A stretch of 64,000 nucleotides of DNA from Zopfochytrium polystomum (taxonomy: Eukaryota; Chytridiomycota; Chytridiomycetes; Chytridiales; Chytridiaceae). How positions within the stretch are numbered: position 1 is the stretch's first letter; each line of letters opens with the position of its first letter. Location of the stretch: NCBI GenBank assembly GCA_025765615.1, contig JAIVFJ010000086.1:197501-261500 (forward strand). Direction: 5' to 3'. The position numbers and the translations under genes were made by a program. Shown piece by piece: positions 20,001 to 64,000 of the stretch. The notes beneath the pieces are model-generated. The model had not been told where the DNA came from, made no database searches, and worked only from the letters and a program-made list of their open reading frames with translations.

Positions 20001-20071
20001 TCCCAGTCCGGGAATTGAACCCGGGTCTACCCCGTGACAGGGGGTGATACTAGCCACTATACTAACTGGGA
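20001..20071 (-). tRNA. tRNA-Asp (GTC)
   Basis: A 71-nt cloverleaf on the minus strand with TCCCAGT/ACTGGGA acceptor stem, anticodon GTC in loop CTGTCAC and T-loop GGTTCAATTCC. No intron. Matches the plus-strand copy at 42507 closely. Confidence 0.94.
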
Positions 20072-20632
20072 CTTGCTTCACCTTCTCTGCATGCTGTATC
20101 GATCCGTATCACTAAGTTTTGCTCTGAGTTTGCGTCGCACACAGACGGAAGCTTTCATGTAAAGAGGTGAGCTAGGGCCTTCAACCACAGCGTCGAGGTA
20201 CTACAGATCACGGCAGCAGCAAATCATACCTCTTTGCCTGTCGATCGAAAAACAGGGCCTACGATCAAATAATAATTGGAATGCACTGGACGGAAGGAAC
20301 CATGTCTCGAGAGAATGAGAAAGTGGTGGAGTATTGGGCCCAGGCGGTTGACTTGGACCATAGACTGGGTAAGGAATCAAAAAAAAAAAAAAAAAAAAAT
20401 CGAGTGGGAGAGGAAGAGAGGCTGGAAACGATCGGCGGGGAGCGGGTGCTCCGACAACGAGGCAGATCGGATCCGCGTGTGAGAGCGTGAGCGATGTGGA
20501 TCTGAGGGCAAGGGACGGGGATGCATCAACACAGCAAAGTGGTTGGATCAGAGGGATCGCGTGAATGGTGGGCTGCGATGAATTCGGGGCGCTGGATCGG
20601 TTGAGTTCGGCGACGAGGATGCGTATCGACGG

Positions 20633-21076
20633 ATGCCTTTCAGGTGTTTGTGCCGGCGGAAGCACTCCCAGCGCGTTGACGAGAAGAGTCTGGCAACTGC
20701 TCGGGAGGCAGGAGGGAGCGCGAGGCCCAAACAACAAACGACAATTCATTCAGGTCGGAGTTTCAAAAACAAATGCCAATCCAAACTTCCCACACCATCA
20801 GCAACCAGAATCGCCACCCACCCGCCCGCGTCCATCACCGCCATCGCCCCGCCATGGTCCTTCCCGCCCGCCGCCCACCTCTGCCGCTGCCATCGCCGCC
20901 GCCGCCACAACGGTCCACTTCTTCATCGTGGGGCTGGGCGCTTGTATCCAGATGCCCGTCCGAAGACGAGCTTAAACAAGGGTCGTCCACGTCGCAAAGC
21001 CTTACTCTTGGCTGACAAGTCGGTCAACGATTTGCGCCGTTATGGGCGGGCAAACGAGATCCAGGAGGAGCGTTGA
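20633..21076 (+). CDS. Possible small basic protein, unrecognised
   Basis: A 147-residue frame. Only the C-terminal ~45 residues (LYPDARPKTSLNKG...LADKSVNDLRRYGRAN, ending EIQEER) look like real protein: charged, helical and free of repeats. The upstream part is Pro/His/Arg-rich and could be non-coding or intron. No family is recognised. If real, the true start or an intron lies inside the current frame. Confidence 0.35.
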   Translation: MPFRCLCRRKHSQRVDEKSLATAREAGGSARPKQQTTIHSGRSFKNKCQSKLPTPSATRIATHPPASITAIAPPWSFPPAAHLCRCHRRRRHNGPLLHRGAGRLYPDARPKTSLNKGRPRRKALLLADKSVNDLRRYGRANEIQEER

Positions 21077-22952
21077 CGGTGAGGGACACAATCATACAAT
21101 ACTTAGTTGCGTATTACACGTGAATCAGCGTGAATGTGATTGCAAGGTGAGTCGTTTGTTTCTTTTCTTTATCTATCATCACAGCTGATTAGATTTAGCG
21201 ATCGGGAAAAGAGTTCGTGGGTGTGCATTTTTTCCCTTCTCATTTGTTTCGTGTTACGCGGGTTTTTTTGAACTGCAAGGAACGGCGCACCGACCATCAT
21301 ATCTCCCCTAGCTTGTGGCCGACAGTTGCTTCCTCATTTGCGTCACTAGGCACCATTTGCAACTTCGCATCTAAAATCTATGGTTGCCTTTTTATTTCTT
21401 TTCTTGTCGATGATGTGTTCATCTCTCTCTCGAACTACATCAGTTTTGTTGGTGAGCGAGTTAAGGAGTGGAGTAGTGTTTACCCCAAGTCTTGTTTTGT
21501 TCCGGTTGAATCCAACATTGGGAGATTGACACCATTTTTTCAAACTTGTTCATCGCTGCTTCCAGCGGTTCTGTTGGAAGGGGCGTTCGAGCAGTTCTGC
21601 CTTCAGAGCACGCTCCACCAAGTGAACCCCAAAGGCGCATTGCGAACGGCTTGAGAGACAATGAACTTGGTACTTCGCTCCGGGCCAGAGCGCCTGCCGA
21701 GGAAGCCGGTTGGAGCCTTCGAAGACAGTCGCAAGGGCCCCGCTCCGCCGCTAGGCCAGGCAGATTAAAAGTTAACTTTCACACCTGCAGACAGTTTGAG
21801 GACGATAGCGACTCGTCGACGACCATCCTGAGTTTGGTTTAACACCGGTGGCTGTGACTCAGACGGCAAACGCCAAGAACTCCAGCACGCACTTGGACGT
21901 GACTGCACTGCACAGATCCGTGACTGCCGCCGCGAGCTCCTTCGCATACTTCACCTGCCATTCGGACTTTTTTGTCAGCCTAGATCCCGACAAACAGCAG
22001 CGGCGCACTCGGGCCTAAATTCCCCAGAGCAATGTTGGAATTTGGAGACAGGATTTGGGTTGATTTGTCTGCAGTGTGGCACCGCACATCCCTCGCACAT
22101 CCCCAGGCCCTGGCTGCTCTCTGCCACCTCATCTGCTGCATCCCAATCTTTGCTTTCGACCTTTCACCCTCTGCCGCTGTGCCTGCCAGATTACAATCAT
22201 CACCCCCCTGATTGCAATTGTCGTGTTAATAATCTCCATCAACACCCTCAAAAAGATCGCAGTTGCGACCACCCTCACCGACACAACCAGAGTCAACTGA
22301 CACTCCAGACTGCTTGCTGCTGCCGCCAGATTGCGATTGCCGCACTGAATCGCAATCATCACCCTCACCATTGCAACTAGATTGTCTTGCCGACTGCTAT
22401 TTTCTATATGTGCTGAATCACAATCACAACCTTTGCTCTCGACCTCTCACCCTCTGTCACTGCACCAACCAGATCGCAATTATCGCCCCTCCCATCAATT
22501 ATTGACTGCTTGCCGCACCCTTTCTACAACTATTATAGCCTGGCGACTTTGCCCCTGTGGGGCCACTGCTCTCACAGCCCTCAACTTGCCACCTCCTATC
22601 CCTTGAAACCTCACTCACTACAACTTATTCATTTACTGGCTTTTCCCCCTCTGACTATAACCCTTGATGCTCCTCCAACCTTCCCTTTTGGGAACTCTGG
22701 CTCAAGCTTTGCCTACTCTTACTACTATCACAACGCATATTTGTTTACCTTTCCTTTTGAACTTCCATTTGGGCTCTTGCCCTTCTGACCACAACTCTTC
22801 TCCTTGATTTCCCCACTGGCTCTTGCCCCTCTGACTATTACTCTTTCTTCTTCTCTTCAACTCTCTCTCGAGAACTTTGCCCCTCTACCTTTCCATTTAC
22901 AACGACAACCTCTCTTCAAAATCCATCCCATTCCCACTACTTTGTTACTATC
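21077..22952. other. Gene-poor region with a possible orphan exon
   Basis: A frame on the minus strand, 21954-21859, is preceded by an AG acceptor and encodes about 31 helical residues (VKYAKELAAAVTDLCSAVTS...) before a TGA. It could be the last exon of a lost gene, but no upstream exon is convincing. From about 22080 to 22900 the strand is C/T-biased with repeated CAATCATCACC-like words and no supported gene. Confidence 0.35.
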
Positions 22953-23127
22953 TGTAACAGTCTACTCTGAGTGAGTGAGTGGAAGGAGTGAATGAAGTGG
23001 AGAAGTGTGCTTGTGGGTGGTCCTTCTCCCAACTTGGAGAGAAAGAGAAAAAACTCTGTTATGAATTATTGATACATAATGATGATATGCATGCTGTTAT
23101 AGTTGCTAGGCAAGTGTGACTGGCACA
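22953..23127 (+). repeat. Truncated R1 LTR (5' half)
   Basis: Begins TGTAACAGTCTACTCTGAGT and follows the R1 consensus through GCTAGGCAAGTGTGACTGGCAC, then diverges into an A-rich run. It lies 220 bp before the next R1 copy in the same orientation. No coding sequence lies between them. Confidence 0.7.
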
Positions 23128-23734
23128 AAAAAAAGAAAAAGGAAATTCTCCCAATCGATTTCCCTGACCTTGAACCACGTTTTCCTGACAGAGCAGGCAG
23201 ACAGACCGCTCCCGCCTGTCAGGCCTAGAAAAGACTGTGGACAGAATAACTGTCGATGCCCTCCAATTTTCAGTGAAAAGCACAATCAACCCACTAAAAA
23301 AACAAAGCTTTGCAGGTAAACCTGTTTCCTAATTGCAATTAGTGAGGGGTGTAAACAGTCTACTCTGAGTGAGTGGAAGGAGTGAATGAAGTGGAGTTCT
23401 CCCCAACTTGGAGAGAAAGAGAAAAACTCTGTTATGAATTATTGATACATGATGATGATATACATGTTGTAATAGTTGCTAGGCAAGCGTGACCGGCACA
23501 GGGTAAAAACCTCTCCTATATTATCTGCTTGAGCAGAGGAGGAGGAAAACTGTTGACACCAGGTTTCCGTTCCACTTAATACTCGGAGTATTTGTCAACA
23601 GCGCAAGCCAGCGACCAGGTCTGCATTGGTGGTGGCTCGCTCTCCCATGGGCATCGTGAGAACGATAACTGACAGTCACAATAGGTTCAGGTCCGTCTTG
23701 TGCCTCTTGCTGCTAACCATTCAGTTCCGCCTAA

Positions 23735-24091
23735 TGTCAGGAACATGGCAGGACAAGGCAAGGCATGGCAGACAAGGAACTGAGAGGAGTGATGATTGTA
23801 TTGGAAACAATAATTCACTTGAGGGATGGGACAGGTCCCCCATCCCCCTTTTATACCTTTTGAGAGTCTTCCTTGTCAAGACTCCAAGAAGTTCCAGAAA
23901 GAGCAATTAGTAATACAATGATACCAATGATACCAATGACAACAAGACAAGTCAGGAAAGCAAAGAAGGTTCCAGAAGGTTCCACCAGGTTCCATGAAGG
24001 AATGTTCTAGAAGGTTCCAGAAGGTTCCAGAAGGTTCCATGAAGGAATGTTCTAGAAGGTTCCAGAGGTTTCCAGAGGGTGATTCATAACA
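23735..24091 (-). repeat. Chromovirus A 3' LTR (sense orientation)
   Basis: 357 bp with TG...CA ends, carrying the HSF-site array, TATA box and R-region start described separately. About 49 bp longer than the copy B LTR because a block of the GAA/TTC array is duplicated. Nearly identical to the partner LTR at 26570. Confidence 0.92.
24000..24037. promoter_or_regulatory. Eight-unit heat-shock element array in the LTR
   Basis: GAA and TTC triplets alternate every five bases with no interruption (GAAnnTTCnnGAAnnTTC repeated twice). This is the consensus for trimeric heat-shock factor. Further units flank it (23965-23979 and 24045-24057). The partner LTR carries the same array at 26837-26874. 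In the sense direction the array lies in U3, upstream of the TATA box. Confidence 0.75.
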
Positions 24092-24139
24092 TCATCTCCC
24101 CCTTTTAGGCCTCTTCTGCAACTTGGTGGGGTACCTGGT

Positions 24140-25689
24140 CTTGAACTTGAGCAGAAGGTCTTGGCAGTGAGTGAGGTTTGACTCAGGTTCCCAGGTGTTG
24201 TCAGCATCTGAGTAACCTTTTCACTTGACAAGGAACTTGAGTGTCCTTCCAAACCACTTGGCATCCAAGATTTGTTCAACCTCAAATTCCTCTTCACCTT
24301 CTACCTCAACTGGAGGAGGAGGAGGAACAACACTCTGCCTGGAATGGAATTGGCCACAACCTTCTCCAAAAGGCTGACATGGAAAACTGGGTGGATCTTC
24401 ATGGATGCAGGGAGATCCAGCTTGAAGGTGACTGGATTGATTTGCTCCAAGATCTTGAAAGGTCCCAACTTGAGGTTGTCTGGCTTGGGACTTGGTCTTT
24501 TGGTCTGCAAGTTCTTCCTCATGCCCGGCCAGTAAAAGTCTCTGGAAACAAGCTCATATGTCTTGTGCTCTCCTGGGTGTCCAGCTGTTGCTGCATCATG
24601 CCTTGTCTTGAGTATCTCAAGTTTTTCCTCTTCTTGGCTGATTTGAATCTTGTGAGGCTTGGGGTCCTTGGAAATAGCATAGGCCCACACACTCTCAGGA
24701 AGCAGTGAAAGGTGTGTCTTGGATGGTGGGGTGAAACCATCTCCCCCTTCAGGTGCAAGGTCTGTCCTTCTGTGCTCATCAGCAGTGGGGCTTGAATTGT
24801 TGACTGGGAACTGTGATTCTTGAATCTTTGACTGAGGGTTCTGTTCTTGGCAAAGACTGTGAGCTGTGGAGCTTGAATCTTGAATTTGGACTGTGAACTG
24901 TGGTACTTGAATCTTTGACTGTGGGTTCTGTGAACTACAGACTTGGCCATGACTGTGAGCTCTATGAGCTGTCCTGGAATCTTGACTATGAACTGTGAAC
25001 TGTGAAACTTGAATCTTGGCTGGGATCTGTGAGCTGCAGGCTGATACTGGAGCTGTCATTTGTCGTTGACCTTGGATACTAGGCTGAGAACCTTGAATCA
25101 GGGACTTGAGAGCATGAGACTTGGAGGCTTGACTTGAGTTTTGGGTGACTGTTCCAATTGGTGGAGGTTGGACTTGACCAGTGACCCAATCAATGGCAGG
25201 GTTCTGGGCTTGCAGCCATGGTAATCCCAGGATGACAGAGAATGTGGGTGAGCCAAGATCCAATACTTCCAGGTTGACCATGGATGGTGGAAAGTCTTGG
25301 ATGTGGAGGTTTAGCTTGGTTTCATGGCTGATTTCCTTGAACAGAGCATGATTGGCAAAGTGGACCTTGAGGGGTGTGGATTTCTTGATGGTGGGAATGG
25401 CACAAGACTTGGCAAGGGTGGCATCAATGATGTTGCAGGATGATCCAGAGTTGATAAGGGCCTTGGTTGTGATGGTTGACTTGGGTGAGAGTTGAATCTT
25501 GACATCCATGGTGAGTTGGTGGGGCTTGGAATCTGAGATGTTTGTGGTGCTGGTGGTGGTGATGAAACAGGGGCAGCTTGGAGGAGGGTCCAGGGAATTG
25601 CCCCTCAGTGAGCCTGGACCTGGGAGTTTGGGTGCTTCTTCCTTGGGCAGTCCTTGACAGCATGCTCCTTGGAGCCACAGTAAAAACAC
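24140..25689 (-). pseudogene. Chromovirus A pol remnant (protease, integrase ends, chromodomain)
   Basis: The protease (IDSG/INSG-type active site [10 protein letters not shown], then [17 protein letters not shown]) is followed by a Ser/Gln-rich spacer. The frame then jumps by deletion to the integrase zinc-binding HHCC region ([24 protein letters not shown]), and again to the integrase C-terminal barrel ([34 protein letters not shown]). A frameshift near 24340 separates the chromodomain. Reverse transcriptase is absent. Confidence 0.85.
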
Positions 25690-25773
25690 AGTCCCTGCTG
25701 GGCCCTCCTTGTTTTCTCCTCTTGGCTCAGAGGACCCTTAGGAAGTGTCTCAACTGCATCCACTTGCATGGGT

Positions 25774-26529
25774 TCAGGAACTGTAAGAGCTTGAGGAACT
25801 GGGGGTAGGTCTTGATGTAGTTCCTACTTGTCTTTGCTTCAGCCTCTTGGAGTAGAGTCTGTTGTCAATCTTGATGGCAAGGAGAATGTACTCTTCCAAG
25901 GTCTCAGGGATGTGCAGAGACTGGGAGAGCATGTCTTGGATAGACTCATGGAGACCATCATGGTACAGCTCCATCAGAGCTGCATCATTGTATCCAGAGT
26001 CTCTGGCTAGTTTCTTGAATTGGTTGGTGTAGGCCACACAAGATTGCTTTCCTTGCTTGATATGCTTGAGCTTGGATCTTGCTGTCCAAGATGCGTAGGG
26101 GTCACCAAAGGTAGCTTCCAGCCTCTCCCAGAGCTCTTGCAGGGTGTTGGGTGTGCTTGGGAGAGATCTGTACCATGATTGAGCTTGACCAGACAGGAGG
26201 GTGCTTGTGAAAAGAACCTTGACTTGCTCACTGGGAAATCTTGAAGGTTGGAGAAGGATGACATTCTCCACAGTGGCCATAAAGTTCCTAAGGTCTTTGG
26301 CCAGCCCAGTGAACTTGTCAGGGCTGGGAACCTTGGGCTCTCTTGCTTGGTTGGCTTGGGGCAGGGGAAGAGCTTGATGTTCTTGTTGGTGAAGTTGTTG
26401 TTGAAGCTGGTGCTGCTGGTGAAGGACTTGTTCTTGAAGTTGGTGTGTCTGTCTTGAAAGGGCTTGTAATTGGTCCATCAAGGCTTGGAAGGCAGTTGCA
26501 TCAGGGAAGGTGTTGTTTGGGTCAGACAT
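25774..26529 (-). pseudogene. Chromovirus A gag, frameshifted
   Basis: 251 residues of the Gag core (FTGLAKDLRNFMATVENV...QSWYRSLP), nearly identical to copy B. A run of five G at about 25800-25805 (four in copy B) shifts the frame just before the CCHC zinc knuckle, which continues in another frame to about 25640. Confidence 0.88.
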
Positions 26530-26556
26530 GATGGCAGAGAGTAGTAGGAGAGGGTG

Positions 26557-26567
26557 AAGTGAATTAT
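26557..26567 (-). promoter_or_regulatory. Self-priming primer-binding site, copy A
   Basis: ATAATTCACTT (sense), 2 nt downstream of the 5' LTR. It is the exact complement of AAGTGAATTAT in the LTR at the predicted transcription start, about 35 nt from the TATA box. No tRNA 3' end is matched, as expected for the Tf1/sushi self-priming lineage. Confidence 0.7.
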
Positions 26568-26569
26568 GA

Positions 26570-26928
26570 TGTCAGGAACATGGCAGGACAAGGCAAGGCA
26601 TGGCAGACAAGGAACTGAGAGGAGTGATGATTGTATTGGAAACAATAATTCACTTGAGGGATGGGACAGGTCCCCCATCCCCCTTTTATACCTTTTGAGA
26701 GTGTTCCTTGTCAAGACTCAAAGAAAGTTCCAGAAAGAGCAATTAGTAATACAATGATACCAATGATACCAATGACAAACAAGACAAGTCAGGAAAGCAA
26801 AGAAGGTTCCAGAAGGTTCCACAAGGTTCCATGAAGGAATGTTCTAGAAGGTTCCAGAAGGTTCCAGAAGGTTCCATGAAGGAATGTTCTAGAAGGTTCC
26901 AGAGGTTTCCAGAGGGTGATTCATAACA
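26570..26928 (-). repeat. Chromovirus A 5' LTR (sense orientation)
   Basis: 359 bp with TATA box (TATAAAAGG in sense) and the HSF array at 26837-26874. It differs from its partner by only a few bases or short indels, implying a fairly recent insertion. Confidence 0.92.
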
Positions 26929-26935
26929 CCTAACA

Positions 26936-27913
26936 AGGGGGGGGCTAAATTTTTTGTCTTTGGTGCCCAATCAAAACTCTGTAGAAGAACTGGAAAAGGA
27001 AGGAGGTAAATGGGTTGTTTCTCTGTCTCTGGGAGTGGCAGTCGGCCATAGAGACCGACAGACAGACTGACAGAGCTCGTCTGTCTCTCTCTGCCTCTCT
27101 GTCTGTCTGTCTGTGTGTCTGTCTATCTCTCTCTCACTCCTCTCTCTCTCTCTCTATCTCTCACTTTCCCTCTCTCCTTCCACTCCAAAACCAGTTTTCT
27201 AATTGTAATAGTGGATTGGCAAGGTGGGGGGGGGGGGGGAGTTTACTTTTTTTCTTTGGCGCCAAATTGAAACGCAGTGGCGAAATTCAAAAAGAAAGTC
27301 AACAGGCTGTCTGTCTATCTGACTGCAAGTCAACAGGTTCTCTGTCTACCCCCTGTCTCTGAGTCTGGGAGTGGTAGTCAACAGGCAGTGGTCTGTCTCG
27401 CTCTCTGTCTCTGACTCTGTTTGTTGGCCGTTGATGGAAGGGAATAATATTGTCTGCAATCTCACTCTCTGTCTCTTTCAAGCGGAGGGGTTGAGGGGGG
27501 GGCAGTAGCCCACCCACCGGGGGGCTCGGGGGGCAGGAGCTTCCTGACTCAAAAAAACAACCCAACCTCTCTCTCTATCTCTCTCACTTTCTCTGTCCAC
27601 TCTGTAAACCCGTTTTCTAATTGCAATAGTGGAGTTGGGGGGGTGGGGTGGGTTTAATGATTTTTCTTTAGTGCCCAATCGAAACGCAGTGGCAAATTTC
27701 AAAAGGGAGTCAACAGGCTGTCTGTTTATCTGAGTGGAAGTCAACAGGTTGTCTGCCTTGCTCTCTGCCTCTGACTCTATGTTGGCTGATGATGGAAAAG
27801 GAATAAAATTGTCTGCAATCTCTCTCTCTCTCTCTCTGTCTCTTTCAAGCTGGGGGGGGGGGTTGAAGGGTTGAGAGGGGGGAAGCAACCCACCGGGGTG
27901 GGTCAGGGGGGCA
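26936..27913. repeat. R2 repeat region, G/CT-rich, partly tandem
   Basis: At least two successive units (about 27175-27575 and 27590-27913) share TTCTAATTG-AATAGTGGA, a G-run, GAAACGCAGTGGC, GTCAACAGGCTGTCTGT and an ending of GGGGGCAGGAGC..CCTGACTC. A partial unit starts at about 26936, and a related one lies at about 32820-33205. No coding capacity; unclassified. Confidence 0.55.
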
Positions 27914-28221
27914 TGTCAGGAACATGGCAGGACAGGACAAGGCAGACATGGAACTGAAAGGAGTGATGATTGTATTGGAAACAATAATTCACTTGAGGGA
28001 TGGGACAGGTCCCCCATCCCCCTTTTATACCTTTTGAGAGCCTTCCTTGTCAAGACTCAAAGAAAATTCCAGAAAGAGCAATTAGTAATACAATGATACC
28101 AATGATACCAATGACAACAAGACAAGTCAGGAAAGCAAAGAAGGTTCCAGAAGGTTCCACAAGGTTCCATGAAGGAATGTTCTAGAACGTTTGAGAGGTG
28201 TCCAGAGAGTGATTCATAACA
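27914..28221 (-). repeat. Chromovirus B 3' LTR (sense orientation)
   Basis: 308 bp, apparently identical to 32139-32446. In sense it starts TGTTATGAATCAC and ends CATGTTCCTGACA. Confidence 0.95.
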
Positions 28222-31200
28222 TCATCTCCCCCTTTGGGCCTTTTCTACAACTTGGTGGGGCACCTTGATAGCTGACATAGCACCTCAAATACTGCACCAG
28301 AGTCTGGTTTGTTCTTTCTGTTTGTCCATCAGTCTGAGGGTGATAAGCAGTTGACAGTTGAGACTTGATTCCAAGGGCTGCTGTGAGTGCCTTCCAAAAT
28401 TGGGATTTGAACTGTGGTCCTCTGTCACTGATGATTGACTGAGGCAGCCCATGGAGCCTGACCATGTGCTGCAAAAACAGGTCTGCTGTTCCTTGTGCAT
28501 CTATATTCTCAGTGCAGGGGATGAAATGGGCCAACTTTGTCCTTCTGCAGATGACAACAAGGATAGAGTCAAATCCTTGGGATAGGGGCAGTTTCACAAT
28601 GAAGTCCATGGATATTGATGACCAAGGGCTGATGGCAATTGGGAGGGGCTCCAGAAGTCCATTGGGCTTGTGTCTGCTGGATTTGTTTCTTTGACAGGTT
28701 TCACAGCTGCTGACATAGTTCTTGATGTACTTCCTCATGCCTGGCCAGTAGAAGTCTCTGGAAACAAGCTCATATGTCTTGTGCTCTCCTGGGTGTCCAG
28801 CTGTTACTGCATCATGCCTTGTCTTGAGTATCTCAAGTTTTTCCTCTTCTTGGCTGATTTGAATCTTGTGAGGCTTGGGGGTCCTTGGAAATAGCATGGG
28901 CCCACACACTGTCAGGAAGCAATGAAAGGTGTGTCTTGGATGGTGGGGTGAAACCATCTCCCCCTTCAGGTGCAAAGGTCTGTTCTTCTTGACAGGGCAT
29001 CAGCCACAGTGTTAAGGTGGCCAGGAGAATAGCACAGCTTAAAGTCATACTCAGAGAGCAGTTCAGCCCACCTGGCATGCCTCTGCTTGAGCAACCTCCT
29101 TGCCCTGAAGAAGGTGAGGTTCTTGTGATCAGAATAGACAGAGATGCCTTTAGAACCAGCCAAGTAGTGTCTCCAGAATTTGAATGCTTCCACAATTGCA
29201 AGCAACTCCTTGTCATGGACTGTGTAGTTACGCTCAGCACTGTTCAGCTTCCTGGAGTAATATGCCACTGGGTGCAGAGGAGCAGAGGGGGTCCTGAGAG
29301 CTTGGCTGGGACAGAACAGCGCCAAGGGCATAGTCTGAGGCATCAGTTTCCAAGGTGAAGGGAAGCAAGGGATCCACATGCTTAAGGAGTGGTGCACTTG
29401 TGGTTGCTGTCTTAAGAGCTAGCCAGGCTTGCTCTGCTGCTGGGGTCCATTCAAACTTGGTGGTCTTCTTGGTGAGATCAGTGAGAGGCTTGGCTATGGC
29501 AGAATAGTTGGCAATGAAGGTTCTGTAGAAGTTTGCAAAATCCAAGGAAGCTTTGAACATCCTTGATGGAATTTGGAGCCTTCCATTCAAGAATAGTTTG
29601 GATCTTGTCTGGTGCCATGGAGATCCCTTTGTCAGACACAATGAACCCCAAAAACTCAATGGAGGTCTTGTGGAATTCACACTTCTCCAGCTTTGCATAG
29701 AGGTGATGCTGTCTGAGTCTCTCCAAGACAGTCTTGACATGTCCCATATGGCTTGCAGTGTCAGATGAAAATACCAGGATATCATCCAGGTAGACAATGA
29801 CAAAAAGGTCCAGAATATCCCTGAAGATGTCATTCATCATGCCTTGGAAAATAGCTGGAGCATTGGTAAGTCCAAAGGGCATAACCAAGTACTCAAAGTG
29901 ACCGTATTTGCATCTGAAGGCAGTCTTCCATTGATCCTGGGGCTTAATTCTGACCAAATTGTAGGCACCTCTGAGGTCAATCTTGGAAAATATCCTTGCA
30001 TGGCTCAGTTTGTCCAGTAATTCAGAGATGAGAGGCAGTGGATAGCGGTTCTTGACTGTCATCTCATTGAGATCTCTGTAGTCCACACAGGGTCTCAGTC
30101 CCCCATCCTTCTTCTTGACAAAAAAGATGGGAGCTCCAGCTGGTGACTTGGAAGGTTGGATGAATCCCTTGTTCAGCATTTCTTCAATGTATTCTTGGAG
30201 GGCCTTGGCTTCTGGTGGAGAGAGGTGGTACAGTGGCTTGAAAGGTGGGCTGCAAGTTTCATCCTTGAGTGGGATTTCACAGTCATAAGGCCTCTGAGCT
30301 GGTAGCAGGTCTGCCTTGGTCTTGGAAAACACATCAGCATAAGGGAGATATTCTTTTGGTAGCTTGGATGCCAGCAAAAGGTCTGATGGGACCAAGTTCC
30401 TGTGCTCTTCAGCAATGGGGCTTGAATTCTTGACTGGGAACTGTGATCCTTGAATCTTTGACTGAGAGTTCTGTTCTTGGCAAAGACTGTGAGCTGTGGA
30501 ACTTGAATCTTGAATGTGGACTGTGAACTGTGGTACTTGAATCATTGACTGTGGGTTCTGTGAACTAGAGTCTTGGCCATGACTGTGAGCTCTATGAGCT
30601 CTACTTGAATCTTGACTGTGAACTGTGAACTGTGGAACTTGAGTCTTGGCTGGGTGTGAATCTTGAATCAAGGGCTTGAGAGCATGAGACTTGGTGGCTT
30701 GACTTGAGCTTTGGGTGACTGTTCCAATTGGTGGAGGTTGGACTTGACCAGTGGCCCAATCAATGGCAGGGTTCTGGGCTTGCAGCCATGGTAATCCCAG
30801 GATGACAGAGAATGTGGGTGAGCCAAGATTCAATCCTTCCAGGTTGACCATGGATGGCGGAAAGTCTTGGATGTGGAGGTTTAGCTTGGTTTCATGGCTG
30901 ATTTCCTTGAACAGAGCATGATTGGCAAAGTGGACCTTGAGGGGTGTGGATTTCTTGATGGTGGGAATGGCACAAGACTTGGCAAGGGTGGCATCAATGA
31001 TGTTGCAGGATGATCCAGAGTCTATAAGGGCCTTGGTTGTGATGGTTGACTTGGGTGAGAGTTGAATCTTGACAACCATGGTGAGTTGGTGGGGCTTGGA
31101 ATCTGAGGTGTTTGTTGTGCTGCTGGTGGTGCTGAAACAGGGGCAGCTTGGAGGAGGGTCCAGGGAATTGCCCCTCAGTGAGCCTTGACCTGGGAGTTTG

Positions 31201-58751: not shown

Positions 58752-60423
58752 AGCACATCAATCCGAGTTTCTCTTTCTTTCTATTTCTGCTACACACACC
58801 TGGCATTATTTTTTTTTTTTTTTTTTTTTTTTTTGGTTGCTTTTTTGTGTGATGTAGACCGTTGGCATGCCCGTCTGTTTATGGGAAACCTTACTTTTGT
58901 GAAGAGGTTGCGGGGGTAAGGTATGGCGTTATTAACTAGGACTGTTCATGGACTGGTGTTTTTTTTCATTTTCACTTTGCCTTCGAGTGTCGGTACTCTT
59001 ATTTTTCAAGCCTTCTATATTTTCCTCCCGGTTTCCCCCCGAGTTACTAGAGCGAGACCGCTCGCTCCGCTATGTCTCCCCCCTATGTCTTCCCTATGTC
59101 TCCCCGCTCCACCCCAAGCTTTTGTCGTGCGTTTTTTTTCTTTTCGCTCTTCCCCCACACCCCTCCTTTTCGCTCTGTAACGGAGCAAGCGAGACGCGGG
59201 CCACCCCTCCATTTCCCCCCAACGTTATTGCCTTGTTTTATTCTTTCTATCTGCTCTTTTTTCATTCTGTGCCGTCTGCCGTCTTACTCTCTACATTTAT
59301 GCACGGTCGCTTTTTCCCTTTTTCTTTTATCCCCCGCTTCCCCTTCATTTATGCTTTATGTTACGGATGGGGCCGGCATTTCTGACTCCTCAACCGAGGG
59401 GCCCCCGACAAGTCCTCCCATGCACTCCCTCCTCTTTTCCCACAACTCCTTCGCGGACAAGTTCCTTTCCCTTTTTTTTTGTGGACCCTTTTTTCCCGTT
59501 TTTGCAGTGCTCATTGACGTCCCCCTTTAAACCCGCCACCCCCCGCGCTCCCCACTTCCCCAACCACCGTAACCCGTTGTGTCTATGCCGGGGACGACTC
59601 GCCAACTCACACTTTCCACGGCCCCTAAACCCTTCTGCGCTTCAAAGGCGGATCCCGAGTTTCACGCGCCCGCCCCTCTCTGACCATACTATCCCATCTC
59701 CCCCACTGTTTCAAGTTTCTTGTGTTTCCTACTTTCGCTGGCTGACACTCCCGCTTGCCACCCCTTCCCCCACCGTCCGCACGGTCTAAGACCCTCCATG
59801 TTCCTCTCTATTTTTTTCTTTCGTCCCCCCCTCTCCCCCGCCCCCGGCAGCTACGACCCGGGGGGGGCTTCTTTCCTCTCTCTTTTTTTTATGGAAGTTT
59901 CATCATTCAAACCCTCCCCCCGCCCCCTTTTATTTGCGAGACCCGCCGAGAGAGGGTAGGTTTGCCTCACCTACTTTCCCCCCGGAGTTCGTCGCTCACC
60001 GCGTCTCACTCTCCCCTTGCCCAAACCAACCCCCTTTTGCGCGGGCACCCCCCTTTGCTTCGCAATCTGTTTCTTTCTTTTTTCCTTTTTTTCGTTTTCT
60101 TTCTTCTTTTTGGGCTGGTTCGTGCAAGGGGCGACTTTGGGCTGTGTTTCGTTTCTCCTCTCTCTCCTTTTTTTTCTTCCTTTTGCAGAAGTATCTATAT
60201 TACATTATCCCCCTCCCCCCTTACAACGTAAAACCGCCCGCGGAACCAACCAACCCCTGTGCCTGGCGTGGAAACGGAAATCGGGGGTTGAGCGCCCGTT
60301 TCGCTGGGATTTGAATGGAACGGATTAGGGGTTTTTCATGTCGACGAAGACGTGCGTTGGGGAAGGGAAACGAAGGCCGTTACCTGGACCCGTCATATTG
60401 TAACAGTTTGCAACTTTCCGCAT
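58752..60423. other. Pyrimidine-rich intergenic region
   Basis: 1.7 kb with strong T/C strand bias, including a T-run at 58809-58834. No domain-bearing frame on either strand. Confidence 0.5.
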
Positions 60424-60516
60424 GCCTGGTTAGCTCAATCGGTAGAGCGTGCGACTCTTAAACCCGCGAGGGAACAAGTAATCGCAAGGCTGTGGGTTCG
60501 ACCCCCACATCGGGCG
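60424..60516 (+). tRNA. tRNA-Lys (CTT) with intron, at the junction with viral DNA
   Basis: 93 nt. Acceptor GCCTGGT pairs with ATCGGGC, the D-arm is AGCTCAATCGGTAGAGC, and anticodon CTT sits in CTCTTAA. An intron of about 19 nt (ACCCGCGAGGGAACAAGTA) precedes TCGCA, which closes the anticodon stem. T-loop GGTTCGACCC. Discriminator G is at 60516. GC-rich host sequence ends here and AT-rich sequence begins at 60517. Confidence 0.93.
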
Positions 60517-61121
60517 CATGCTTCAGGTAAAGAAATATCAGCATTTGTAAATGTTTTTTTAAAGTTTAGAACAATAGAAATAGGAATTGTTGGTCCAGTT
60601 ACAACTAAACTATCATATTGTTTCATTATGTCTGCAACATATTTGCTCGCCATAACGCGATTTTTCCTATACATGCACATTTGTTGTTGAATATCGTGAT
60701 AAAGAGCACTAAATAAAGCACTGGTGTTCATATGTTGTTCACATTTTTTCTCAAATTGTAAAAAGTTTTGAAGAACTGATAAAACAGTGACAATATATGT
60801 GAATAGTTTCATTATAATGTCAAATACAAATGTGCGGGAATCGTTTGAAACAGTTGTTTCTACGGTTAATCCCGTACTAAACATAATAGTTGCAACACTA
60901 ATTATTTGATAATAGAGACGATACGAAGCTGCACTTTTTTCATGCATCCATTTGTAACTAGCTGCGTTTTCACCAATTGAAATAACAATTCTTTCATTCT
61001 TATCGTTCCAACCATTATTAATATCAATAATGTTTATTTTTTCAAGAACATCTTCTTTGCTTGTATCTTTGTCCCTATCTCTTACAATGTTTTGAACAAT
61101 ATTTTCAAGATTATCAGTCAT
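60435..61121 (-). CDS. SLATT-like two-TM membrane protein, C-terminus run into tRNA antisense
   Basis: 228 residues from ATG 61121. An acidic N-terminal region is followed by WMHEKSAASYRLYYQ and two hydrophobic helices (about residues 70-88 and 101-121) separated by a short polar loop. A charged helical tail follows (EKKCEQHMNTSALFSALYHDIQQQM). This layout matches SLATT/2TM proteins common in giant viruses and in bacterial conflict systems, which are predicted pore-formers; the assignment is by architecture only. The last ~27 residues (after NADISLPEA) are encoded by the antisense of the tRNA-Lys gene, so the native C-terminus was lost or replaced at the integration junction. Codons are AT-rich, unlike all host genes here. 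Divergent from the reductase, 74 bp between start codons. Confidence 0.7.
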   Translation of the reverse strand: MTDNLENIVQNIVRDRDKDTSKEDVLEKINIIDINNGWNDKNERIVISIGENAASYKWMHEKSAASYRLYYQIISVATIMFSTGLTVETTVSNDSRTFVFDIIMKLFTYIVTVLSVLQNFLQFEKKCEQHMNTSALFSALYHDIQQQMCMYRKNRVMASKYVADIMKQYDSLVVTGPTIPISIVLNFKKTFTNADISLPEACARCGGRTHSLAITCSLAGLRVARSTD

Positions 61122-61140
61122 TACTGATAGCTATTATAAA

Positions 61141-61148
61141 AAAATTGA
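61141..61148 (+). promoter_or_regulatory. AAAATTGA early-promoter octamer
   Basis: An exact match to the mimivirus early promoter motif, 48 nt upstream of the reductase ATG at 61196, in the correct orientation and within the known distance range. It lies in the 74-bp divergent spacer. No copy in the opposite orientation was found for the SLATT-like gene. Confidence 0.7.
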
Positions 61149-61195
61149 AAATCATATTCGTTGAGACATTAAACAAAATATACTTGTTATTGGAA

Positions 61196-64000
61196 ATGAG
61201 GATCCAAAAAAGAAATGGAACATACGAACAACTTTCATTTGACAAAATCATACGTAGATTGCAAAAGTTATGTCAAGATGAGCCTCTTGGGTTGTTAACA
61301 ACAATTGATCCAGATATTGTTGCTCAAAAAGTAGTATCAGGAATTTATGATGGAGTAACATCAAGTGAACTTGACGAAGAAGCAGCACGTATTGCCGTAT
61401 CCATGAGTGAAAATATGGAATATCAAAAATTAGCATCCAGAATTATCATTAGCAATCATCATAAAAGCACAGATATGTACTTTTCAAATGTAATGAATAG
61501 GCTCTTTAATAATTATGACAAAAATGGAGAACATGCCCCAATTGTTTCTGATGAATTTATTGAAATTACAAGACAAAACAAGTCTGCAATTGAAAAAATG
61601 ATTGATTACAAAAGAGATTACTTATTTGATTATTTTGGGTTTAAAACACTTGAAAAAAGTTATCTTCAAAAAGTATATGACCATTCAGATGGGAAAATGA
61701 AATGTATTGAACGTCCTCAACACTTGTACATGAGAGTTGCTATAGCACTTCACAAAAATGATCTTGAATCAGTAAAGAAAACATATGATTATATTTCCCA
61801 ACACTACTATACACATGCAAGTCCCACTTTGTTTAATGCTGGAACAAGACTTCCAAATTATGCATCATGTTTTTTAATGGGAACAAACGATTCAATTGAA
61901 GGGATATTCAAAACAATTACAGATTGTGGATTAATTTCTAAAGTAGGTGGTGGTATTGGTGTCCATATTTCAAATATACGTGCTAAGGGAAGTATTATTC
62001 GAGGAACTAATGGTGTTAGTGATGGAATTATTCCAATGATTAAAGTTTACAATTCAACTTGTGCATGGGTAAATCAATGTTTCACACCTGATTCCTGGGT
62101 ATATTCAGAAGAAGGACCAAAACAAATGAAAAGTGTAACTACAAATGATAAACTTGTAACTATAGATGGAAGTTTTAAGAAAGTAAATGAAGTAATTGTA
62201 AACAATATTAACAAAGAAATCTTGAAAATAACTGCAAGGTCCATGGCAGAACCCATCAAAGTTACAAAAGAACACGAAATCTATATAAAGAAAGACATTA
62301 ATTCAGCTCCAGAATTTGTACCTGCTGAAACATTAAAGCCTGGATATTACGTTTGTCATAAAATTCCAACAACAATATACGACAATTCTGCAAATAATAT
62401 AGAATACTACATGTTCTATGGAGCATTAATGGCATTCGGAAATATTGTTGGAAATAAATATGAATTCATAATTCCAAAAAGTAATAATAACACTTTAAAT
62501 CTACTTATGAATTGTGCTATTAATTACACAATGACAGATGACATCGAATCACATTTAGTTAACATGACATTTGATTACAATCACAACCAACCAATTTTTG
62601 GAATTACAATAGATGAAATATATAACAACGATGGATTCAAACAAGTCAATGAAAAAATAATCAACTTACCAAAACATAAACTAAATCTAGTACTTAATAA
62701 TATGTTGACAGAATACACGTATATTTATAGTGATTCAGAACAATTATTAAGGGACATTAAGTATATGTACTTAAAGTGTGGAATTTTGGTTGAAATAATG
62801 GATAACAAAGTCTTTCCAGACAATGAAAACTATATATTACAAGATTATACAATTTGGACAAAAGTCACAAGCATTTCTAAAATGAATTATTCTGGTTTGG
62901 TATATGATTTCAACATGGAAGATAACCACAATTACCAAACAGACCTTGGTATTGTTCATAACAGCGGACGAAGGAAAGGATCTTTTGCAATGTATTTGGA
63001 ACCATGGCATGCAGATATTTTTGAATTCTTAGATCTGAAAAAATCACAAGGCCACGACGACCTTCGAGCAAGAGATTTATTTTATGCAATTTGGACACCT
63101 GATTTATTCATGAAACAAGTGAAAAACAATGATGACTGGTATTTGATGTGTCCAGATGAATGTCCTGGACTAACAGATACTTACGGAGAAGATTTTGAAA
63201 AATTATATTGGTCATATGTTGATGCAAAAAAATACAGAAAAGTCGTATCAGCACAAGATTTATGGAAAGCAATTTTAATGTCTATCATCGAAACAGGAAC
63301 ACCATACGTCTCATTCAAGGATCACATTAATAGAAAATGTAATCAAAAAAATTTAGGAACAATTAAATCTTCAAATTTGTGCTCAGAAATATCATTGTAT
63401 TCAGATGACAATAATTATGCAACTTGTAATTTATGTTCAATTGCTTTACCAAAATTTGTTGATTCCGAAAATGGAGTTGATCACACTAAATTATACGAAG
63501 TTGCTTATCATACAGTTAAAGCTATGAATCAAGTTATTGACAATACCTATTATCCAACCGAAGAAACTAAAAAAAACAAACATTGCACATAGACCATTAG
63601 GCATTGGTGTTCAAGGTTTGGCTGATGTATTTTTCAAATTAAAAATACCATTTGAATCAAAAGAGGCTAAAAAAATTAATAGAGAAATTTTTGAAACAAT
63701 ATATTATGCAACATTGAAATCGAGTATAGATGAAGCAAAAAAACATGGACCTTATTCTAGTTATAAAGATAGTCCTTTTAGTCAAGGACTCCTACAAATG
63801 GATCTTGCCAAACATTATGATTCTGTTAACATTGAATTAACAGACAGATGGGACTGGGATGAACTTAAAAGTGATTTGAAAAAATATGGAATAAGAAATA
63901 GCATGTTAACTGCCTTAATGCCAACAGCAAGCACAGCCCAAATCATGGGAAACACTGAAAGCTTTGAGCCCATTGATTCTTGCATTTTCAACGAAGAGTC
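61196..64000 (+). CDS. Ribonucleotide reductase large subunit, class I, with intein; 3' end outside the window
   Basis: Makes deoxyribonucleotides with a small subunit not in view. ATG 61196 is chosen because it follows the promoter octamer and starts MRIQKRNGTYEQLSFDKI, the ATP-cone. Next are the N-terminal barrel parts ASPTLFNAGT and NYASCFLM (redox Cys), GGGIGVHISNIRA, and NSTCAWVNQ. An intein occupies 62078-62962. The C-extein continues GRRKGSFAMYLEPWHADIFEFLDLKK, SSNLCSEI (thiyl-radical Cys) and ATCNLCS (second redox Cys). An eight-A run at 63569-63576 shifts the frame; RPLGIGVQGLADVFFKL continues downstream to the window end (ALMPTASTAQIMGNTESFEP). The frame change may be a homopolymer error. 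Codon use is strongly AT-biased. Confidence 0.92.
62078..62962 (+). other. In-frame intein, 295 residues, in the reductase
   Basis: Begins at Cys1 (CFTPDSWVYSEEGPKQM) directly after VNQ and ends VHN before Ser+1 of the C-extein. Block A, block B (ITARSMAEPIKVTKEHEIYI, with T-x-x-H) and blocks F/G (LVYDFNMEDNHNYQTDLGIVHN, with the penultimate His and last Asn) are all present, so self-splicing chemistry looks intact. The central ~130 residues (YYMFYGALMAFGNIVGNKYEF...) could be a degenerate LAGLIDADG endonuclease, with no clear paired acidic motifs. Inserted just before the conserved G-K/R-R-K-G-S-F-A block. Confidence 0.9.

What the first reader, a model, noticed from the sequence alone, without database searches (positions are those of the whole stretch)
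60424..64000. Giant-virus DNA integrated directly at the 3' end of a host tRNA-Lys gene
Seen: a GC-rich host tRNA-Lys with a eukaryotic intron ends at 60516 and AT-rich, intron-less, tightly packed sequence starts at the next base. That sequence encodes a SLATT-like protein and an intein-bearing RNR large subunit and carries an AAAATTGA promoter. Known: endogenous nucleocytoplasmic large DNA virus segments occur in some early-diverging fungi. Inference: this is the left edge of such an insertion, and the breakpoint at a tRNA 3' end suggests site-directed integration rather than random joining.
Basis: partly seen in the sequence, partly recalled or inferred. Interest (0 to 1): 0.88.

Follow-up and report, generated by a model that had tools for sequence, protein, structure and literature searches.

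The report
Giant-virus fragment beside fungal tRNA gene
The end of this chytrid-like fungal contig carries a short piece of giant-virus DNA joined just after an intact lysine tRNA gene, but the join cuts through a viral gene and shows no sign of targeted insertion, so it looks like an ordinary viral fossil or an assembly join rather than a new integration mechanism.

Summary
The sequence is largely as described. An intron-bearing tRNA-Lys(CTT) lies at 60424-60516, and AT-rich DNA (31% GC against 55%) begins within 8 bases of its end. It carries a SLATT-like gene and, divergently, a eukaryote/virus-type RNR large subunit with an intein. The RNR groups with metagenomic RNRs, not with the fungus's own four RNR loci, and RNR and SLATT appear to be neighbours in related contigs. 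Giant-virus (Nucleocytoviricota) origin is well supported.

The site-directed reading is not supported. The join cuts the SLATT gene after about two thirds of its length. The lost part was not found elsewhere in the 80-Mb assembly. None of 66 copies of the tRNA-Lys 3' end is a lone fragment beside AT-rich DNA. The contig stops 4.8 kb past the join, so the far boundary and hallmark genes are missing, and no reads could be checked. The RNR frame is broken at least twice. Another virus-host join in this genome lies in a dispersed repeat, not at a tRNA.

Best reading: a decaying endogenous giant-virus fragment joined by illegitimate repair. A contig-end chimera remains a serious rival. The AAAATTGA motif is no more frequent than chance. 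New member of a known kind; modest interest.

The parts
60424..60516 (+). tRNA-Lys(CTT) gene with short anticodon-loop intron; appears intact
   Evidence: ARAGORN, Rfam RF00005 55.2 bits; acceptor ends pair by eye
60517..60524 (.). join between host and viral sequence; 8 bases of unassigned origin (some may be the host 3' trailer)
   Evidence: SLATT homology ends at 60525; composition change point 60527, range 60515-60533
60525..61121 (-). SLATT-like (SMODS and SLOG-associating 2TM effector) viral gene, truncated by the join after about 199 codons; the 120 listed relatives have 214-347 residues
61122..61195 (.). short intergenic stretch between divergent genes, holding one AAAATTGA (not above chance)
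61196..64000 (+). Viral-type ribonucleotide reductase large subunit, frame broken near 63.57-63.59 kb; gene continues past the window end
   Evidence: Pfam, PDB relatives, tree, tblastn pieces
62078..62962 (+). Intein inside the RNR gene (Cys first, His-Asn last, Ser as next extein residue)
   Evidence: PF14890; residues read and edges

Best explanation
A fragment of a Nucleocytoviricota (giant virus) genome has been joined to a chytrid-like fungal chromosome a few bases downstream of an intact tRNA-Lys gene by illegitimate (non-homologous) repair, and is decaying. Shown: the host tRNA, the abrupt composition change, the viral-type RNR and the mid-gene cut in SLATT. Inferred: that the join is real DNA, and that it arose by end joining at a chromosome break, for which tRNA genes are known fragile sites (recalled, not from a call). 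The tRNA is probably incidental, or marks the break rather than an integrase target.
For: Part of the RNR first extein (residues 61-294 of the translated piece) is 55.6-75.2% identical to 115 metagenomic homologues (of 119 tried) and 46-50% to the four host RNR loci. In a FastTree of 155 sequences it forms, with all 104 distinct metagenomic ones, a group of 105 with support 0.994, without host or IMG/VR sequences; the four host loci form their own group with support 0.997; tree distance 0.43 to the nearest and about 1.5 to the host. SLATT and RNR homologue lists of 120 each share 19 contig lengths against 0.4 expected, so the genes are often neighbours. SLATT is cut after about two thirds; its C-terminal part was not found in the genome. 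Other giant-virus genes lie in the same assembly: VLTF3 at C340:1080, a D5 piece on C340, with a host dispersed repeat at C340:1-913 and Ty3-type elements further along; an MCP fragment on C206 in host-GC DNA. The primase-fragment/host-repeat join of C340 recurs on C419 and, inside the contig, on C387, so virus-like DNA is part of the genome. RNR frame breaks fit decay.
Against: Only one side of the join exists, and the contig ends 4.8 kb later. No other part of this particular virus was found by its SLATT or RNR. Frame breaks lie beside short homopolymer runs, so they could be sequencing errors. CpG in the tail (0.62) is within the range of seven viral contigs that I picked from the 80 (0.33-0.98; two of the seven gave the same values), while TpG/CpA (1.35) is above theirs (0.98-1.21): inconclusive. 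No reads were available. By chance a break falls within 8 bases after one of the 10 tRNAs of the host part about 0.13% of the time (my arithmetic), so the tRNA position is a little surprising under random joining.
Confidence: 0.58

Rival explanations
1. Assembly or library chimera: the last 4.8 kb of contig C86 come from a free virus or another template and were joined to the host contig in error.
For: The foreign stretch sits at the very end of the contig. RNR has at least two frame breaks while the longest host-part frame stays open over 946 codons. Its SLATT and RNR do not recur elsewhere in the assembly; the other RNR matches are host-like.
Against: No full capsid gene and no A32 gene was found (the A32 model also rings in 2 of 14 control genomes, so it is not blind), as would be expected if free virus had been co-sequenced and kept. 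The genome has other virus-like DNA joined to host repeats inside contigs. The tRNA-Lys upstream flank gave no second place among the 40 matches scored of 71 candidates.
Confidence: 0.32
2. Site-directed integration: a virus-encoded recombinase inserted the giant-virus genome at the 3' end of the tRNA-Lys gene, leaving the tRNA intact, as many phages do.
For: The join lies within 8 bases of the tRNA 3' end and the tRNA is intact. Phaeoviruses are proposed to integrate by a tyrosine recombinase with 2-base homology (PMC13236599, passages), so a long duplication is not obligatory.
Against: The viral side is cut inside a conserved gene whose rest was not found. Of 66 tRNA-Lys 3' ends none is a lone end beside AT-rich DNA (48 viewed; the other 18 align as near full-length tRNAs). 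The host-repeat/primase join on C340 has no tRNA. No integrase was seen in the proteins scanned from the 4.8 kb; five partial tyrosine-recombinase matches over the cut-off (32.5-35 bits) lie on other contigs whose context I could not read.
Confidence: 0.07
3. The join is a later rearrangement (deletion or translocation) between an older, larger viral insertion and the tRNA region, so the present edge says nothing about how the virus entered. (This overlaps with the best explanation; the odds are not exclusive.)
For: C340 mixes viral genes, host repeats and LTR elements, and the repeat/viral join is found on three contigs, showing rearrangement; SLATT is cut mid-gene. tRNA-Lys-headed repeats are dispersed in this genome.
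Against: The window tRNA copy has no repeat body and its flanks matched nowhere else, so repeat-mediated exchange at this copy is not indicated. It cannot be separated from the best explanation without the far side.
Confidence: 0.25

Closest known systems
Endogenous giant-virus DNA in fungi: Gonapodya prolifera, Allomyces macrogynus, Rhizophagus irregularis (PMC5294986, passages; PMC10640383, passages)
   Same: Giant-virus genes in early-diverging fungal genomes, among eukaryotic genes; in R. irregularis also decaying genes and a GC contrast
   Different: Those carry hallmark genes and, for R. irregularis, long reads were mapped over a 1.5-Mb region; here only 4.8 kb at a contig end, with an intein-bearing RNR and a cut SLATT gene
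Ectocarpus phaeovirus elements inserted by a tyrosine recombinase at a CC dinucleotide (PMC13236599, passages)
   Same: Giant-virus DNA joined to host DNA, proposed without long target duplication
   Different: Conserved viral ends and both edges are known there; here the viral edge lies inside a gene and no recombinase was seen
Chlamydomonas punuiviruses with terminal inverted repeats and target-site duplications (as described in PMC13236599, passages)
   Same: Integrated giant virus
   Different: No terminal repeat or duplication could be shown here; right edge absent
Phage or archaeal-virus integration at tRNA 3' ends (recalled, no call)
   Same: Position beside an intact tRNA 3' end
   Different: No attachment-site duplication found, no integrase seen, viral edge inside a gene
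Viral ribonucleotide reductase inteins (PMC5784728, passages)
   Same: Intein in a viral RNR large subunit
   Different: 295 residues; relatives' RNRs of about 1167 residues imply inteins of about 356, so this one is probably reduced (inference)

Membership tests
Giant endogenous viral element (GEVE) | Genes of Nucleocytoviricota origin | tested here: met
   RNR tree and identities, one relative each named viral metagenome for RNR and SLATT, SLATT/RNR neighbourhood; no named Nucleocytoviricota reference was in the tree
Giant endogenous viral element (GEVE) | Flanked by host DNA on both sides | tested here: inconclusive
   Host DNA on the left only; contig ends 4.8 kb past the join
Giant endogenous viral element (GEVE) | Several hallmark genes (MCP, A32, D5, PolB, VLTF3) within the element | tested here: not met
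   None in the 4.8 kb (one frame matches a phycodnavirus minor capsid profile at E 0.022, below its cut-off). In the genome: VLTF3 and D5 on C340, MCP fragment on C206, no A32; PolB not searched
Giant endogenous viral element (GEVE) | Reads crossing the edge | not testable with these tools
   No read data held
tRNA-targeted site-specific integration | Junction at the tRNA 3' end with the tRNA kept intact | tested here: met
   resolution 8 bases
tRNA-targeted site-specific integration | Duplicated tRNA 3' end at the far boundary | tested here: not met
   0 of 66 copies qualifies; a far boundary outside the assembly or a core under 20 bases would be missed
tRNA-targeted site-specific integration | Element ends at a defined, usually intergenic attachment site (recalled) | tested here: not met
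   Join lies inside the SLATT gene; C-terminal part not found
tRNA-targeted site-specific integration | Element encodes an integrase | tested here: inconclusive
   None in the 4.8 kb; five partial PF00589 matches over the cut-off on other contigs, context not read
Intein | Splicing domain with Cys1, terminal His-Asn, Ser/Thr/Cys as next residue, inside a conserved protein | tested here: met
   PF14890 just under the cut-off in the whole frame, over it alone; residues, edges; splicing itself not tested
SLATT 2TM effector family | SLATT profile match | tested here: inconclusive
   SLATT_4 E 0.0013 below cut-off; among the 120 relatives listed, 13 carry PF18160 or PF18186

The most novel reading that the evidence does not exclude
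A giant virus of a chytrid fungus integrates beside tRNA genes, using the region just after the tRNA-Lys 3' end as its target with only a very short attachment core, so that no long tRNA duplication is left; the attachment point on the viral side lies inside the SLATT gene, and the far half of the insertion is missing from the assembly.
Probability: 0.06. Interest if true: 0.82.

Novelty: new member of a known kind. Interest (0 to 1): 0.33.

Why it matters
If the join is real it adds a chytrid-like fungus with an intein-bearing giant-virus RNR to the few fungi with giant-virus DNA, and this genome looks rich in virus-like insertions worth a full survey. If the tRNA were a true target it would be a third mode of giant-virus integration beside the CC-dinucleotide and inverted-repeat modes (PMC13236599, passages); the present evidence speaks against that.

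Tried and rejected
Rejected: (1) tRNA-directed integration, by the cut SLATT gene, the C-terminal part not found, and 0 of 66 lone tRNA 3' ends. (2) A whole free virus co-sequenced and kept in the assembly: no full MCP, no A32; this does not exclude viral contigs filtered out before deposit. (3) Host origin of the RNR. (4) The AAAATTGA promoter as evidence: 1 against 1.7 expected in the tail, 11 against 7.1 in the C340 viral part, 100 first-order random sequences each. (5) An AT-rich stretch before the tRNA-Lys on C234 looked like a second junction, but 1.5 kb of flank rises to host GC. (6) CpG depletion as a clock: inconclusive.

Correction made on checking: re-rooted the tree and thereby shifted support labels by one node and printed the host as not monophyletic; one search counts the splits without rooting, and those numbers are used here. 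Naming the host: one host protein found chytrids (Blyttiomyces, Chytridium, Cladochytrium) as its nearest named relatives at 35-36%; the species is not known. The viral family within Nucleocytoviricota was not determined. Papers, passages only; listings; PMC12210455 was searched for five terms without a match. Giant-virus integration at a tRNA gene was not found in print by the searches, nor in the passages of PMC8204020 and PMC11702301 that those searches listed; the cryptophyte polinton-like virus paper reports no tRNA genes near its integration sites (PMC12220804).
Full report
What is there. The window is C86:197501-261500 of an 80.16-Mb, 761-contig assembly; the contig ends at 262,806, only 1,306 bases beyond the window. 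A tRNA-Lys(CTT) with a short intron occupies 60424-60516. The host part has 55% GC, the DNA after the tRNA 31%, and the best single change point is 60527, with 60515-60533 within 2 lnL units. On the minus strand a SLATT-like frame starts at 61121 and runs without a stop into the tRNA complement. Aligned with 14 relatives, it follows them up to the proline at 60525-60527 and then departs, while the relatives go on, for example for 106 more residues in P0241. So the join lies in 60517-60524, and it cuts a viral gene.

The RNR. From the ATG at 61196 a class Ia RNR large subunit begins, with ATP-cone, all-alpha and barrel domains. In the PDB its first extein is closer to 3hnc and 1zyz (E 2.1e-82 and 4.6e-79) than to 1rlr (E 5.9e-19); that these are human, yeast and E. 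coli R1 is recalled. This is the eukaryote/giant-virus type rather than a bacterial or phage type (inference). An intein occupies 62078-62962 (edges, profile matches). The reading frame breaks near 63.57-63.59 kb and again past the window near L009:6.49-6.50 kb, both close to short homopolymer runs, and the C-terminal tail of relatives is not recognisable. Of 119 metagenomic homologues tried, 115 aligned over more than 215 residues and are 55.6-75.2% identical in that piece; the four host RNR loci give 46-50%. These, the 80 IMG/VR loci and the four host loci leave 155 distinct sequences (104 metagenomic, 46 IMG/VR, 4 host, 1 window). In their FastTree the window and all 104 metagenomic sequences form one side of a split with support 0.994; the host four form a split with support 0.997; inner nodes near the window are poorly supported (0.33-0.51). 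The host RNR on C147 has intron-like gaps by eye and no intein.

Viral neighbourhood. The 120 best RNR homologues and the 120 best SLATT homologues share 19 'longest contig' lengths, against a mean of 0.4 (maximum 4) in 2,000 jittered controls. I could not fetch those contigs, so this is indirect evidence that the two genes are neighbours in the viruses. One RNR relative (P0011) and one SLATT relative (P0258) are named as from a viral metagenome.

Other viral DNA in the genome. VLTF3 is on C340 (0 of 14 control genomes ring), with a D5-type primase piece, a caspase-like frame and a tail-collar frame. C340 starts with a host dispersed repeat (122 matches in the genome, itself included) and holds Ty3-type elements at about 45-53 kb. 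A primase fragment joined to this repeat recurs on C419 and, inside the contig, on C387. A multicopy AT-rich element with a primase-like gene lies on C144, C554, C198, C471, C25, C63 and C428. MCP appears only as a 53-position fragment on C206 (0 of 14 controls) and A32 not at all (2 of 14 controls ring). PolB was not searched. Insertion of virus-like DNA in this genome is therefore credible in general; none of it is shown to belong to the same virus as the window piece.

Is the tRNA a target? For: the join is within 8 bases of the tRNA end; with 10 tRNAs in the host part of the window this happens by chance for about 0.13% of random breakpoints (my arithmetic, after the fact). Against: the viral edge is inside a conserved gene; the rest of that gene was not found; the 20-base tRNA 3' end has 66 copies with up to 2 mismatches, of which I viewed 48 with flanks and the other 18 align over near the full tRNA, and none is a lone 3' end beside AT-rich DNA. 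Eight copies that are 5'-truncated or internally deleted, by eye, have 37-55% GC upstream. The other placeable join is in a dispersed repeat, and the first 10 kb of C340 have no Rfam match. A core shorter than 20 bases, or a far edge outside the assembly, would escape this test.

Real or artefact? Against artefact: virus-like DNA is abundant in the assembly and no complete capsid gene is present. For artefact: the foreign DNA is at the contig end, single-copy, and has at least two frame breaks in about 3 kb of RNR, while the longest host frame stays open over 946 codons. CpG statistics do not decide. I put a real join at roughly two to one.

Comparison. Endogenous giant-virus DNA in fungi is known (PMC5294986 passages; PMC10640383 passages), as are viral RNR inteins (PMC5784728 passages) and two modes of giant-virus integration (PMC13236599 passages). 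Giant viruses themselves can carry intron-bearing tRNA genes (PMC9894930 passages), but here the tRNA is continuous with 60 kb of host DNA and has a relative at 92% on C660 in host-GC DNA, so it is read as the host's. This is a new member of a known kind; what would be new, tRNA targeting, is not supported.

Noticed in passing
L040-L044 (C428, C471, C198, C144, C554), 1.2 kb each: Multicopy AT-rich element with a primase/helicase-like gene (PHROG DNA primase E 3.7e-6), copies on C554, C198, C471, C25, C63, C428 85-97% identical to that on C144, plus a short (about 70-base) piece scattered alone in many places.
   Followed up: partly
L023:1-966, L039:1-973, L045:139-472: The same host-repeat/primase-fragment join on three contigs (C340, C419, C387), 95-97% identical: apparently a duplicated virus-host junction.
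   Followed up: partly
L003-L008, L063-L065, L077-L080, L082-L085: tRNA-Lys-headed dispersed repeats with shared 3' bodies, some 5'-truncated, looking like SINE families.
   Followed up: no
L017:1501-1659 (C206:50226-50384): Fragment of a giant-virus major capsid gene in host-like GC surroundings, probably an older insertion.
   Followed up: no
window 20001-30000: LTR-element region with strong CpG depletion (O/E 0.34) against 0.86-1.17 in the other 10-kb blocks of the host part, suggesting methylation of repeats.
   Followed up: no
window 60419-60425 and 60515-60521: The 7-mer CGCATGC flanks the tRNA on both sides, overlapping its first and last two bases; may be chance.
   Followed up: no
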